From contig JAUIGV010000009.1 of the NCBI GenBank assembly GCA_030432565.1, positions 1 through 64,000 of the forward strand: a stretch of DNA of 64,000 nt, written 5' to 3'. The DNA comes from Verrucomicrobiia bacterium (GTDB lineage Bacteria > Verrucomicrobiota > Verrucomicrobiia > Verrucomicrobiales > Akkermansiaceae). Positions 26,874 through 30,963 of this stretch are shown here, piece after piece. The notes beneath the pieces were generated by a model. It was not told the DNA's origin and did not search any database. It saw nothing but the letters and a program-made list of their open reading frames with translations. Within the stretch, counting starts at the first letter, position 1; each line of letters opens with the position of its first letter. The translations under genes were made by a program, and so were the position numbers.

Positions 26874-27413
26874 TCATAAAGAAAAACGGCGGGTGAGATA
26901 GTCCGGCGGGACCGACTCGGTCAGCCAAACTCCATTCTCGGACAGAAAGAATTGGTGACCGTGGTTGTGCATGACGTTTGAGGAAATTTCGAGAATGATG
27001 GGCTTGCCATGTTTCTCGCCTGCGTCGTGTGCGGGGCGAATGCCGCGACTCAGATGAACCTGCTGACGGGACATTTTGGAAAGACCTTCGCGCTCAATAA
27101 GATCCATGAAACGAGTGGCGGTCCCGTGGTAGAGGAATTCGGGAGGTTTTTTTGCGACCGCTACAAGTTCGATCTCGATCGAGTGTCCTTCGTTTGCCCG
27201 GATTGCGGTTCCGTCGTCAGTGAAGGAAAATCGTCGAGGCTCATGCGAGTTCACCAGCTTTTCGAGATCGGCGCAGGTGAACGGGCCATGCTTTTTGTTC
27301 AGGCATGTCAGGAGTTCATCGACCCGGGCCCAGCCTTTTGGATCAAGGGTGAGGCCAATTTCTTCCGGTCGGTGTTTCAGAACCAGGCTGAGAAGACCGA
27401 TTAATTTTTTCAT
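26874..27413 (-). CDS. kptA: RNA 2'-phosphotransferase (KptA/Tpt1)
   Basis: 179 residues from ATG 27413 (MKKLIGLLSLVLKHRPEEIG). The open frame upstream runs through the formate dehydrogenase gene and is ignored. Family marks are LSLVLKHRPEEIGLTLD, GWARVDELL, FLYHGTATRF (H96 in the NAD-binding part) and VHLSRG. Tpt1/KptA moves an internal RNA 2'-phosphate to NAD+, giving ADP-ribose 1'',2''-cyclic phosphate; its bacterial role is unsettled because bacteria lack tRNA splicing of that type. It is 28 bp after fdhA on the same strand. Confidence 0.93.
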   Translation of the reverse strand: MKKLIGLLSLVLKHRPEEIGLTLDPKGWARVDELLTCLNKKHGPFTCADLEKLVNSHEPRRFSFTDDGTAIRANEGHSIEIELVAVAKKPPEFLYHGTATRFMDLIEREGLSKMSRQQVHLSRGIRPAHDAGEKHGKPIILEISSNVMHNHGHQFFLSENGVWLTESVPPDYLTRRFSL

Positions 27414-27441
27414 GGCAATGCCGGAAGACAGAGAGTCTCCG

Positions 27442-30180
27442 CTAAGCTGGCTTGATCCGGACAGGGCAGACTTTGAGTTCGGCGGTTTGGGTGACAGGGT
27501 CGTAGCCGGATCCGGTGAGAATGTTGACGTTGGTGTCGGCAAAGCTGAAGGAGGTGAAAACGGTGCCGCGCGGAGAGCGGGTGGTGGCTTCGACCTTGAG
27601 CTGGATCTCGCCCCGGCGGCTGGCAATCTTGGCAAATTTGCCGTCGATGAGGCCCCAGTCCCTGGCGTCGTCCGGGTGGACTTCAAGAGTTTCCTCGGAG
27701 AGGAGGTAGTCGATGCCACTGGCGCGCCCGGTTTGGGTGCGGGTGTGATAGGCCTGGAGGCGGCGACCGGTGGTGAGCCAGACCGGGTAGTCGTCATCGA
27801 TGACTTCGGCGGGGTCACGGTAGCCGATGATTTTGAAGAGGCCTGGTTTGCCGTCTTTGAATTCGCCTTGGTGGAGGATGGGAGTGCCGGGGTGGCCTTC
27901 TTCGGGGACTGGCCATTGGTAGTTGCCGTCGCCGATATTGTCCCAGTTGAGACCTTTGTAGATCGGACTCAGTGAGCAGAGTTCGTTGAAAACGTCTTTT
28001 GCAGATTCGAATTCGAATCCGGGAATGCCCATTTCTTTGGCGATGCCGGCGATGATCCACCAGTCGGGTTTGGAGTCGCCCCAGGAAGGGACGGCGGCGC
28101 GGAGGCGTTGGACCCGTCGTTCGGTGTTTGCCTGGACTCCATCGGTTTCGCCCCAGGCGGAGGCGGGGAGGACGACGTCGGCCATTTGGGCGGTTTCGGT
28201 GAGGAAAATGTCAATGACGACGAGGTGGTCCAGAGAGTTGAGGGCCTTTTCACAGTGGTTTTTATCCGGGTCGGTGACCACGGTATTTTCGCCGTTGATG
28301 AGCATGGCGTGGATTCCTCCCTCTTTCTGCCCGCAGAGGTTCAGAGCGGTGACCTTGGTCATGGCATTGCCGAGGTCGAGGTCGGGTTGTTGATACGCTT
28401 TCTTGAACTTTTCGTGAAACTCCTCCGAGACCACGGGTTGGAAGCCGGGATAGTTTGCGGGGACGGCTCCGCAGTCACCGGCGCCCTGAATGTTGTTCTG
28501 TCCGCGCATCGGGTTGATGCCGGTGCCTTCCTTGCCGAGATTGCCGGTGAGCAGGGCGAGGTTGCAGAGGGACTGGACGTTGTCGACTCCGCAAATGTGC
28601 TCGGTGATGCCGAGAGTGTAATAAATGGCTCCGAGTTTGGCCGAGCCATACCAGAGGGCGGCTTGTTCGATATCAGCCGCAGGGACTTCGCAGATTTCAG
28701 AGGCCCACTCCGGAGTGAATTCCCTGACGTGTTCCTTAAAGGCTTCGATCTCGGTGGTTCGGTCGGAAATGAATTCCGTGTCCTCCAATCCTTCCCGCAC
28801 GATGACGTGAGCCATGGCGAGGAGAAGGGCGACGTCGGATCCAACGCGGATGGGGAGATGAAGGTGGGCAAGCTCGGCGAGGCGCGTCTTGCGGGGGTCG
28901 GCGACGACGAGTTTGGCTCCCTTTGTGAGTGCTTTTTTGAGGCCGGTAGCGGCGACAGGGTGGCACTCGGTCATGTTGGTGCCGATGGCGAAGATGGTGT
29001 CGGGTTTGTCCATGTCCACGAGGGGGTTGGACATTGCGCCTCTTCCGATTTGAGCGGCCAGACCGGCCACGGTGGGAGCGTGTCAGGCTCGACTACAGTT
29101 ATCGATGTGGTGTGTCCCGAATCCCGCTCGAATGAACTTTTGCATCGAGTAGGCGGCTTCGTGCGGGGCCCGGCCGGAAGCGATTCCGAAAATACTATGT
29201 CTGCCGTATTTGGCCTTCGCCTTGGCAAATCCTTCGGCGGCTTTCTTAAGGGCCTCGTCCCACTCGACCTCTTTAAAGGTTCCGTCGGCTTGTTTGATGA
29301 GGGGCTTCTTGAGGCGATCCTCGTGTTGGATGAAATCGTAAGTGAACTGGCCTTTGATGCAGAGGGCACCTTTGTTGGCGGGGCCGTCCATCGCGGGCTG
29401 GGCCCCGACGATTTTGTCGCCCTTCGTCATGAGGTCAATCGAACAACCAACGGCGCAATATGGACAAACCGTGCGGGTCTTTTTGATGGGCTCGGGGAGA
29501 GCTTCGGCGCGAATGGCCTTCTTGTCAGCAAGAGCACCAGTGGGGCAGGTTTGAATGCACTGTCCGCAGAAGGTGCAGTCGGAATCACGGAGGTCGTTGT
29601 TGAACTCGGTGGTGATTTGAGTGTGGAAGCCGCGGTTGGCGACGGTGATGGCGTAGTCGCCTTCCTGTTCGGCGCAGACGCGGACGCAACGGTAGCAGGA
29701 AATGCACTGCTCGTAGTCGCGGAGAATGAAGGGGTTTTCGTCTTTGATGTTTGAAGTGCCCGATTTGGCTCCTTTGAAGCGACCATTGCGGGCGCCGTAT
29801 TTGTTAACGAGGGTGGAGAGCTCCTGGGAGGCGAGGCCGCGGAGAGGGTCGACATCGATCTGGCGGTTTTCAGAAGCGACCATTTCGAGGAGCGTCTTAC
29901 GCATTTTCTCGATTCGGGGTGGGGCCGTTTTCACGACCATGCCGTCGTTGGCCTTGGTGGTGCAGGAGGCGACGGGATTGCGGATGCCTTCGACCTCGAC
30001 AACGCAGAGGCGGCATCCGCCGAAGGCATCTAGGCGATCATCGTAACAGAGAGTGGGAATGTCTTTTTTGAGACGGGTGGCGACTTGGTAGATCGTTTCG
30101 CCTTCGGTGAAAGTGGTCTTTTGGCCATCAATGGTGATGGCAAGTTGTGAGGCGATGGCGGAGTTTGGGTCGTTGATCAT
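27442..30180 (-). CDS. fdhA: Selenocysteine formate dehydrogenase alpha subunit (TGA read as Sec)
   Basis: 912 residues if the TGA at 29083-29085 is decoded as residue 366. Cofactor sites: [2Fe-2S] C45/C56/C59/C73; [4Fe-4S] C159/162/165/169, C202/205/208/212 and C239/242/246/274; then the molybdopterin domain. At the TGA the protein reads NCSRA-U-HAPTVAGLA, the place where formate dehydrogenases have Cys or Sec (E. coli FdhF U140 in RV-U-HGPSVAGL). Both sides stay in one frame. The N-terminal NuoG-like modules suggest an NAD- or ferredoxin-linked cytoplasmic enzyme. No partner subunits, fdhD or sel genes are in the window. Confidence 0.9.
29054..29085 (-). promoter_or_regulatory. SECIS-like hairpin following the in-frame TGA
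   Basis: On the minus strand the mRNA has UGA (29085-29083), 18 nt, then GGUCU (29064-29060) as the loop of a 6-bp stem, GUGGCC with GGCCGC (29070-29065 and 29059-29054, one U-G pair). E. coli fdhF has the same GGUCU loop 18 nt after its UGA, which SelB recognises. The match in loop sequence and spacing was read by eye. Confidence 0.8.
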
Positions 30181-30236: not shown

Positions 30237-30623
30237 TTATGTGATGAGATCTCTGAGGCGGGTGGCGAGGTCGGCCTTGCGGATGCGGGAGGCGGCGACG
30301 TCGAGGACGAGGGCCTCCCAGTCGGGGCTGTCAGGTGTGGGTTGGTAACCGTTTAGCTTTAGGAAGATGAGGCAGGTGGCGAAGGCGACGCGCTTGTTTC
30401 CATCCACGAAAGGATGGTTACTGCAGAGGTAGAAATGGTAGGCCGCAGCAACCTCAATGGGATCGGTAATGATTGGGGTGCCCCCGAGGGTGGCTTGTGG
30501 CACGGCGAGGGCACTTTCCAAAAGAGCCTCGTCGCGCAGGCCGTCGCTGCCTCCATCTTTTTCGAGGACTGCTTGGTGAAGGCGAAGGATCTGGTTCTTG
30601 GTGGGATGAACCAAGTCGCTCAT
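30237..30623 (-). CDS. doc: Doc-type (Fic family) toxin
   Basis: 128 residues, the normal Doc length. The Fic motif HPFVDGNKR lies at 70-78; Doc proteins carry this form, and Doc phosphorylates elongation factor Tu to stop translation. Its start overlaps the stop of the antitoxin gene by 4 bp. The sequence is complete, so it is likely active. It lies 56 bp before the fdhA start, on the same strand. Confidence 0.93.
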   Translation of the reverse strand: MSDLVHPTKNQILRLHQAVLEKDGGSDGLRDEALLESALAVPQATLGGTPIITDPIEVAAAYHFYLCSNHPFVDGNKRVAFATCLIFLKLNGYQPTPDSPDWEALVLDVAASRIRKADLATRLRDLIT

Positions 30624-30859
30624 GAGAGCTTGGTGAGGGTGTCACTGTAATCTTCGAGCACGCTTTCGATCGCTTGATCGAAACTTTCATCATCAACAGT
30701 CCGGTCTTTGACGGGAGTGAAAGTAATCGTCCCGCCCTCGTGAATGGTGACGGAGAGTTGGTCGCCTTCCTTGAGGTGGGCCATTTCGAGGAAGGCGGCG
30801 TCGAGGATGATGCCTTTTGAGTTCCCGATTTTCTTGATCGTCTTAACTATGGAAAACAA
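30620..30859 (-). CDS. AbrB/MazE-type antitoxin of Doc
   Basis: 79 residues from a TTG at 30859; no ATG fits, and the longer open frame is antisense to the sigma-factor gene with a proline-rich low-complexity translation, so it is rejected. KTIKKIGNSKGIILDAAFLEMAHLKEGDQLSV is a swapped-hairpin AbrB DNA-binding domain; the acidic C-terminus should neutralise Doc. Such pairs usually repress their own promoter, which here would lie in the 104 bp shared with the divergent sigma-factor gene. The exact start is uncertain. Confidence 0.8.
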   Translation of the reverse strand: MFSIVKTIKKIGNSKGIILDAAFLEMAHLKEGDQLSVTIHEGGTITFTPVKDRTVDDESFDQAIESVLEDYSDTLTKLS

Positions 30860-30963
30860 TGTATTACGCAGGTGGGTAGGTGTCAAATTCCTTGTCGGAA
30901 GATAAAAACGGAGTGGTGGAATTTTTTTGTCCGTTTTTTGGGGGTGGTGGTGTCTTTTGGGTG

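What the first reader, a model, noticed from the sequence alone, without database searches (positions are those of the whole stretch)
27442..30180. Selenocysteine formate dehydrogenase in a verrucomicrobial-looking genome
Two abutting frames are one formate dehydrogenase split by a single TGA that falls exactly at the catalytic Cys/Sec site (NCSRA-TGA-HAPTVAGL). Flanking codons stay in frame and intact over 900 residues, which a random nonsense mutation would not explain as well. A standard caller would report two genes or a pseudogene. If true, the organism decodes Sec, which I would not assume for this phylum.
Basis: partly seen in the sequence, partly recalled or inferred. Interest (0 to 1): 0.88.

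Follow-up and report, generated by a model that had tools for sequence, protein, structure and literature searches.

The report
Selenium-dependent formate dehydrogenase in Verrucomicrobiota
This gene, which looks split in two, encodes one formate-oxidising enzyme whose apparent stop codon is almost certainly read as the rare amino acid selenocysteine; the genome carries the full machinery for that, so it is a known system found here in a scattered set of Verrucomicrobiota.

Summary
Observation confirmed; interpretation supported. Window 27442-30180 (-) reads as one 912-aa formate dehydrogenase alpha subunit with a single in-frame TGA (29083-29085) that aligns with selenocysteine 140 of E. coli FdhF. 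All 37 related loci that cover the site (36 draft genomes, titled mostly Verrucomicrobiota, six Gemmatimonadota) have TGA there and no other internal stop. A bacterial SECIS hairpin follows: its loop codons 372-374 are the only 3 of 190 conserved fourfold sites with an invariant third base, and one stem pair covaries between two synonymous positions, paired in 30 of 30 distinct sequences. The same assembly encodes tRNA-Sec (anticodon TCA), selA, selB, selD (with an in-frame TGA of its own), fdhD and mnmH. A NuoE-NuoF-type beta subunit, near the alpha gene in 23 of 37 relatives, lies on another contig here. selB passes its cut-off in 25 of 387 sampled genomes of the phylum, including all 5 with a TGA-type enzyme. 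This is a new member of a known kind: Sec-type, probably NAD(P)-linked formate dehydrogenase. Its patchy occurrence in Verrucomicrobiota was not mentioned in the passages I could search. There are no protein data.

The parts
27442..30180 (-). fdhA: formate dehydrogenase alpha subunit, 912 aa, read through one TGA as selenocysteine
   Evidence: TIGR01591 740 bits over cut-off 666.25
29083..29085 (-). TGA codon 366, predicted selenocysteine, aligned with Sec140 of E. coli FdhF
29030..29088 (-). bacterial SECIS region (Rfam SECIS_3, 33.5 bits, E 6.7e-6; below the gathering score of 63)
   Evidence: own model R1 lists only this place in the genome, 150 of 3618 first-look candidates scored
29054..29070 (-). 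apical SECIS hairpin, 6 pairs with loop GGUCU
29059..29067 (-). codons 372-374 (GCC GGT CTG): the only 3 of 190 conserved fourfold sites with invariant third base
29923..30147 (-). N-terminal 2Fe-2S domain (PF13510)
29530..29733 (-). NuoG/Nqo3-like ferredoxin domain (PF22117)
29323..29484 (-). Molybdop_Fe4S4 domain (PF04879)
28036..29316 (-). Molybdopterin oxidoreductase domain (PF00384), holds the Sec residue
27463..27780 (-). Molybdopterin dinucleotide binding domain (PF01568)

Best explanation
The gene encodes the catalytic alpha subunit of a molybdopterin-dependent, probably cytoplasmic and NAD(P)-linked formate dehydrogenase of alpha-beta type. Shown by sequence: UGA 366 stands at the catalytic Sec/Cys site; a SECIS hairpin with a GGUCU loop follows directly; and tRNA-Sec (anticodon UCA), SelA, SelB (with C-terminal winged-helix domains) and SelD are encoded in the same assembly. 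Inferred from the E. coli pathway: SelA and SelD convert Ser-tRNA to Sec-tRNA, and SelB bound to the hairpin delivers it at the UGA. Inferred: FdhD sulfurates the metal cofactor, Sec ligates Mo or W, formate is oxidised to CO2, and electrons pass through the N-terminal Fe-S domains to a separately encoded NuoE-NuoF-type beta subunit that reduces NAD(P)+. Location in the cell was not tested.
For: Single TGA at the catalytic site in 37 of 37 related loci. K276, U366, H367 and R559 align with K44, Sec140, H141 and R333 of E. coli FdhF, 39% identity (that these four are catalytic is recalled). SECIS hairpin: 180 of 180 cells paired, covariation score 0.264 against a shuffled mean of 0.076 (0 of 500 as high), the pair at columns 21/33 occurring as CG 13, GC 8, UA 8, AU 1. 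3 of 190 conserved fourfold sites have zero third-base entropy and all three are the loop codons. E. coli fdhF carries the same GGTCTG at the same distance after its TGA. selC 54.4 bits, over the Rfam cut-off, anticodon TCA; selA 413.7 bits; selB 315.6 with SelB-wing domains; selD 386.7. fdhD is intact. A beta subunit gene 85.6-86.5% identical over 555 residues to the gene upstream of fdhA in L022, L023, L026 and L028, with NADH-binding and 2Fe-2S domains. selB is over cut-off in 33 of 36 genomes with TGA-type enzymes. In the 387-genome sample all 5 TGA-type genomes have selB, against 3 of 27 with a non-TGA enzyme (Fisher p 2.8e-4; genomes are related, so not independent).
Against: No protein, transcript or selenium data. 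The single-sequence fold of the SECIS region is no better than shuffles (z -0.15 to 0.94); the Rfam score lies below the gathering cut-off and the lower stem of the Rfam model is poorly formed. Only one of six stem pairs shows changes on both sides, and two of the five measures (pairs with a change on both sides, 1 against 1.0; further pair types, 6 against 6.2) do not exceed the shuffles. The tRNA-Sec model is not very selective: 5 of 14 control genomes pass its cut-off, although only 2 of 14 pass that of selB or selA. 3 of 36 genomes with the TGA gene show no selB over cut-off (drafts). The beta partner lies on another contig, and 11 of 37 relatives with 5 kb of upstream flank have no beta gene there, so the pairing is by homology. 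Metal, electron acceptor and direction are not tested.
Confidence: 0.97

Rival explanations
1. The TGA is a nonsense mutation or sequencing error, and the gene is a pseudogene or two fragments.
For: The standard code gives two ORFs.
Against: 37 of 37 related loci carry the same TGA and no other stop; equal constraint before and after the codon; loop codons frozen at synonymous sites; selB goes with the TGA.
Confidence: 0.01
2. The organism reassigns TGA genome-wide to a sense codon, so TGA here means another residue.
For: In-frame TGA in fdhA and selD.
Against: Of 41 long non-overlapping ORFs taken mechanically from the window (not curated genes; one of the 11 lies antisense to fdhA), 11 end in TGA; selA, selB and mnmH have no internal TGA; the fdhA site is a Sec/Cys site by alignment and the selD site is one as recalled; tRNA-Sec and SelB are present.
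Confidence: 0.01
3. The alpha subunit is a selenoprotein but works with another partner or as a ferredoxin-linked monomer, because the NuoE-NuoF gene is not adjacent.
For: No beta gene lies in the window (the two NuoF matches of the genome are on C64 and C23) or in the flank held of 14 of 37 relatives, 11 of which have 5 kb upstream (L021, L024, L025, L029, L031, L033, L039, L041, L044, L050, L056).
Against: The beta homologue is kept in the window's genome at 86% identity to the linked form, while the other NuoF (C64) is about 37-42% identical to it over aligned stretches.
Confidence: 0.12

Closest known systems
FDH1 of Methylorubrum extorquens (chains 7vw6_A, 7e5z_A; organism recalled)
   Same: Best solved match over 902 residues; alpha with a NuoE-NuoF-type beta (beta recalled)
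   Different: Cys at the catalytic site in the alignment as printed; Sec here
Moorella thermoacetica NADP-dependent Sec-type FDH (recalled, not tested)
   Same: Sec in a NuoG-like alpha with a NuoE-NuoF-type beta (recalled)
   Different: Not compared here; cofactor preference here unknown
E. coli FdhF (formate dehydrogenase H)
   Same: Sec at the aligned site, K/Sec/H/R residues kept, same GGTCTG in the SECIS loop
   Different: The alignment begins at residue 232 of the window protein, so FdhF lacks the N-terminal NuoG-like Fe-S part; part of formate hydrogenlyase (recalled); 39% identity
Sec-type FdhA and Sec machinery in Planctomycetes (PMC4807772, 12 of 22 passages seen)
   Same: Same superphylum (recalled); full set of Sec genes, fdhA not co-located with them in P1
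   Different: Different phylum; sequences not compared here

Membership tests
Formate dehydrogenase alpha subunit (TIGR01591) | score over the curated cut-off | tested here: met
   740 bits against 666.25
Formate dehydrogenase alpha subunit (TIGR01591) | catalytic Sec/Cys, His, Arg and Lys as in FdhF | tested here: met
   (residue roles recalled)
Formate dehydrogenase alpha subunit (TIGR01591) | formate oxidation activity | not testable with these tools
   no biochemistry
Bacterial selenoprotein | in-frame TGA at a redox site with Cys homologues | tested here: met
   Cys at the site in 25 of 30 phylum loci, U in 5 of 30, the window's own included
Bacterial selenoprotein | SECIS hairpin directly downstream | tested here: met
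   the Rfam gathering score of 63 itself is not reached (33.5 bits)
Sec-decoding trait | selA, selB, selC, selD in the genome | tested here: met
NAD(P)-linked alpha-beta FDH | NuoE-NuoF-type beta subunit encoded | tested here: met
   contig C23, 86% identical to the linked form in four relatives
NAD(P)-linked alpha-beta FDH | complex formation and NAD(P) reduction | not testable with these tools
   needs protein

The most novel reading that the evidence does not exclude
The Sec-type FDH alpha-beta pair is a mobile module that moved between Verrucomicrobiota and Gemmatimonadota, landing in lineages that already had their own, long-diverged SelB. Alpha is 66-70% and beta 62-65% identical between the window's genome and six Gemmatimonadota drafts, while SelB is only 30.7-33.5% identical and the six Gemmatimonadota SelB rows form one group.
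Probability: 0.35. Interest if true: 0.45.

Novelty: new member of a known kind. Interest (0 to 1): 0.35.

Why it matters
It gives a secure case for selenocysteine decoding in Akkermansiaceae-like and other Verrucomicrobiota lineages, used for formate oxidation, with Sec and Cys forms of the enzyme side by side in one phylum. In practice, annotation by the standard code would split this enzyme in the draft genomes found here, so formate metabolism and selenium need may be under-called in the group (inference; existing annotations of these drafts were not looked at).

Tried and rejected
Pseudogene or sequencing error: rejected by conservation. Genome-wide TGA reassignment: rejected. Single-sequence folding as proof of the SECIS: uninformative; comparative evidence was used instead. 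Rfam on the selD SECIS: no match, although the fold scores z -3.3 for one 55-base choice of ends and -2.3 and -1.95 for the two others. Searching the own genome with the FDH SECIS model R1 for further selenoproteins listed only fdhA, with 150 of 3618 candidates scored, so the selenoproteome was not enumerated beyond FdhA and SelD. A first regular-expression search for the motif in the phylum loci printed nothing because it read one strand only; redone on both strands (too strict a motif: 3 loci) and by alignment (30 loci). Two trees are quick searches with warnings about long branches; they are a rough guide only. Rows dropped: L058 (site not covered) and L059 (no motif) from the count of TGA loci; 8 duplicates from the 38 SECIS sequences (30 distinct); L032, L050, L053, L059 and L069 from the FDH tree; L032, L050 and L053 from the neighbour survey. 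Literature: nine library searches (listings only) and 'find' passages of PMC5029168, PMC4807772, PMC5322559, PMC1794560, PMC12013277, PMC13188914, PMC5330540, PMC3281104, PMC2398784, PMC9312934, PMC8674449 and PMC10507051, plus the outline and one whole section of PMC5029168. None of the passages I saw names Sec decoding in Verrucomicrobiota; PMC3281104 names SELO homologues in the phylum. For PMC4807772 12 of 22 places were shown. Supplementary tables (for example Table S1 of PMC5029168) could not be read, so an earlier listing there is possible, even likely.

Full report
WHAT IS THERE. The two ORFs at 29083-30180 and 27442-29070 on the minus strand are one frame of 912 codons with a single TGA at codon 366, 29083-29085. 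The product is a formate dehydrogenase alpha subunit: TIGR01591 at 740 bits over the cut-off of 666.25. Its domain order is 2Fe-2S, NuoG-like ferredoxin, Molybdop_Fe4S4, molybdopterin oxidoreductase and dinucleotide binding. The best solved relatives by sequence are formate dehydrogenases 7vw6, 7e5z, 9wxb and 6tg9 (that these are NAD-linked is recalled). The aligned residue is printed as Cys in the three alignments shown, 7vw6, 7e5z and 9wxb. Against E. coli FdhF (39% identity) codon 366 aligns with Sec140, and K44, H141 and R333 align with K276, H367 and R559.

CONSERVATION OF THE TGA. A scan of genome contigs gave 39 loci. L058 does not cover the site and L059 is a distant enzyme without the motif; the other 37 all have TGA at the site and no other internal stop. 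Titles are mostly Akkermansiaceae, Verrucomicrobiales or other Verrucomicrobiota; six are Gemmatimonadota (L045-L049, L054) and two are unnamed bacteria (L022, L051). L044 and L050 come from one draft, so the 37 loci stand for 36 genomes. Protein identity is 66-98% (best segment), and constraint is much the same before and after the TGA in the seven pairs compared.

SECIS. Rfam SECIS_3 matches 29030-29088 in register with the TGA, 33.5 bits, E 6.7e-6 in a 401-base search, below the curated 63 bits. Folding a single sequence is uninformative. In 30 distinct sequences the apical hairpin, six pairs around GGUCU, is paired in 180 of 180 cells. The pair between the third base of a Val codon and the third base of an Ala codon appears as CG 13, GC 8, UA 8 and AU 1. 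Covariation is 0.264 against 0.076 shuffled (0 of 500 as high) and slid versions reach at most 0.095; two of the five measures, the number of pairs with a two-sided change (1) and of further pair types (6), do not exceed the shuffles, since only one pair varies on both sides. In 38 coding sequences 190 fourfold sites are conserved in amino acid (95% or more); mean third-base entropy is 1.53 bits and only three sites are invariant, codons 372-374, which hold the loop. E. coli fdhF, fetched as a yardstick, has the same GGTCTG at the same distance. The own model R1 lists no second such element in the genome, 150 of 3618 first-look candidates having been scored.

MACHINERY. In the same assembly (5,927,505 bases, 82 contigs, 97.3% complete, 0.19% contamination): tRNA-Sec at C35 over the Rfam cut-off (54.4 bits; the next hit scores 39.8 and is tRNA-Ser) with anticodon TCA; that cut-off is also passed in 5 of 14 control genomes. 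selA lies on the same contig as fdhA; selB on C18 with SelB-wing domains; selD on C73 with its own in-frame TGA at residue 18 in GGUASK. Over-cut-off controls for selA and selB are 2 of 14 each, and for selD 2 of 14. mnmH/SelU, the selenouridine synthase, is present too (330 bits over 219.75), and fdhD is intact on C62, its one TAA being the natural end.

PARTNER. tblastn finds a NuoE-NuoF fusion upstream of fdhA in 23 of 37 relatives. In 16 of these it ends within about 250 bases of the match start, in the others 0.4 to 4.2 kb away. In 14 of 37 none lies in the flank held; 11 of them have 5 kb upstream. The window belongs to the second kind and shares gene order around fdhA with L021, L024, L025, L029, L039 and L044. 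Its genome keeps a 561-aa homologue on C23, 85.6-86.5% identical over 555 residues to the gene in L022, L023, L026 and L028; the other NuoF, on C64, is about 37-42% identical. fdhD lies near fdhA in L028, L032 and L037. I therefore read the enzyme as an alpha-beta NAD(P)-linked formate dehydrogenase whose genes are apart in this lineage; the pairing is inferred.

DISTRIBUTION. selB passes its curated cut-off in 25 of 387 genomes sampled across the phylum, and in 4 of 39 of the same family, the own genome included. A relative of the alpha subunit at E 1e-150 or better is in 32 of 387; 5 have an internal TGA and all 5 have selB, while of the 27 without TGA only 3 (G168, G288, G349) have selB (Fisher p 2.8e-4; related genomes, so the p-value is only indicative). 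Of the 30 loci held, 25 have Cys at the site and 5 have U, one of them the window itself. Among genomes behind the TGA loci, 33 of 36 have selB over cut-off; G398, G404 and G408 do not, which fits incomplete drafts but is not proven. On the quick FDH tree of 65 rows the Sec/Cys state needs at least 4 changes, with a Sec and a Cys row paired in two starred clades (L080/L085, L081/L084). The direction of change is not told.

EXCHANGE BETWEEN PHYLA. Alpha is 66-70% and beta 62-65% identical between the window's genome and the Gemmatimonadota drafts, but SelB is 30.7-33.5%. Within the phylum the figures for L037 are 73% alpha and 42% SelB. SelB evolves faster in general, so transfer of the enzyme is suggested, not shown. 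The six Gemmatimonadota SelB rows form one starred group.

LITERATURE. In the main texts of PMC5029168, PMC5322559, PMC1794560, PMC12013277, PMC13188914, PMC5330540, PMC2398784 and PMC9312934 the string 'Verrucomicrob' does not occur (term counts). PMC5029168 reports SelD in almost all bacterial lineages; the exceptions it names, in a 'such as' list, do not include this phylum (section read), so its tables may already list it. PMC4807772 reports the full Sec set and a Sec-type fdhA in Planctomycetes (passages).

VERDICT. The system is of a known kind; what is added is a secure case with its hairpin, machinery, likely partner and distribution.

Noticed in passing
window 30237-30907 (-): A Fic/Doc-family gene and a MazE-like antitoxin gene (a likely toxin-antitoxin pair) sit directly upstream of fdhA, where other relatives have the FDH beta subunit.
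   Followed up: partly
window 26874-27413 (-): KptA/Tpt1 RNA 2'-phosphotransferase gene 28 bases downstream of fdhA; the mechanical ORF 26874-27818 overlaps fdhA but the domain begins inside (the start at 27413 is my reading).
   Followed up: partly
L064:2395-3444 (genome contig C73): selD is itself a predicted selenoprotein (GGUASK) with a hairpin after its TGA that scores well for one choice of ends but matches no Rfam family.
   Followed up: partly
genome contig C61:32080-32988: mnmH/SelU selenouridine synthase, so the organism probably uses selenium in tRNA as well.
   Followed up: no
L109-L165: SelB proteins of the sampled genomes fall in two well separated groups with full support, one of which holds the Gemmatimonadota rows, in a midpoint-rooted quick tree.
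   Followed up: no
L067:2742-5411 (genome contig C68): A second molybdopterin oxidoreductase of 889 aa with no internal TGA, distant from FDH, about 117 kb from fdhA.
   Followed up: no
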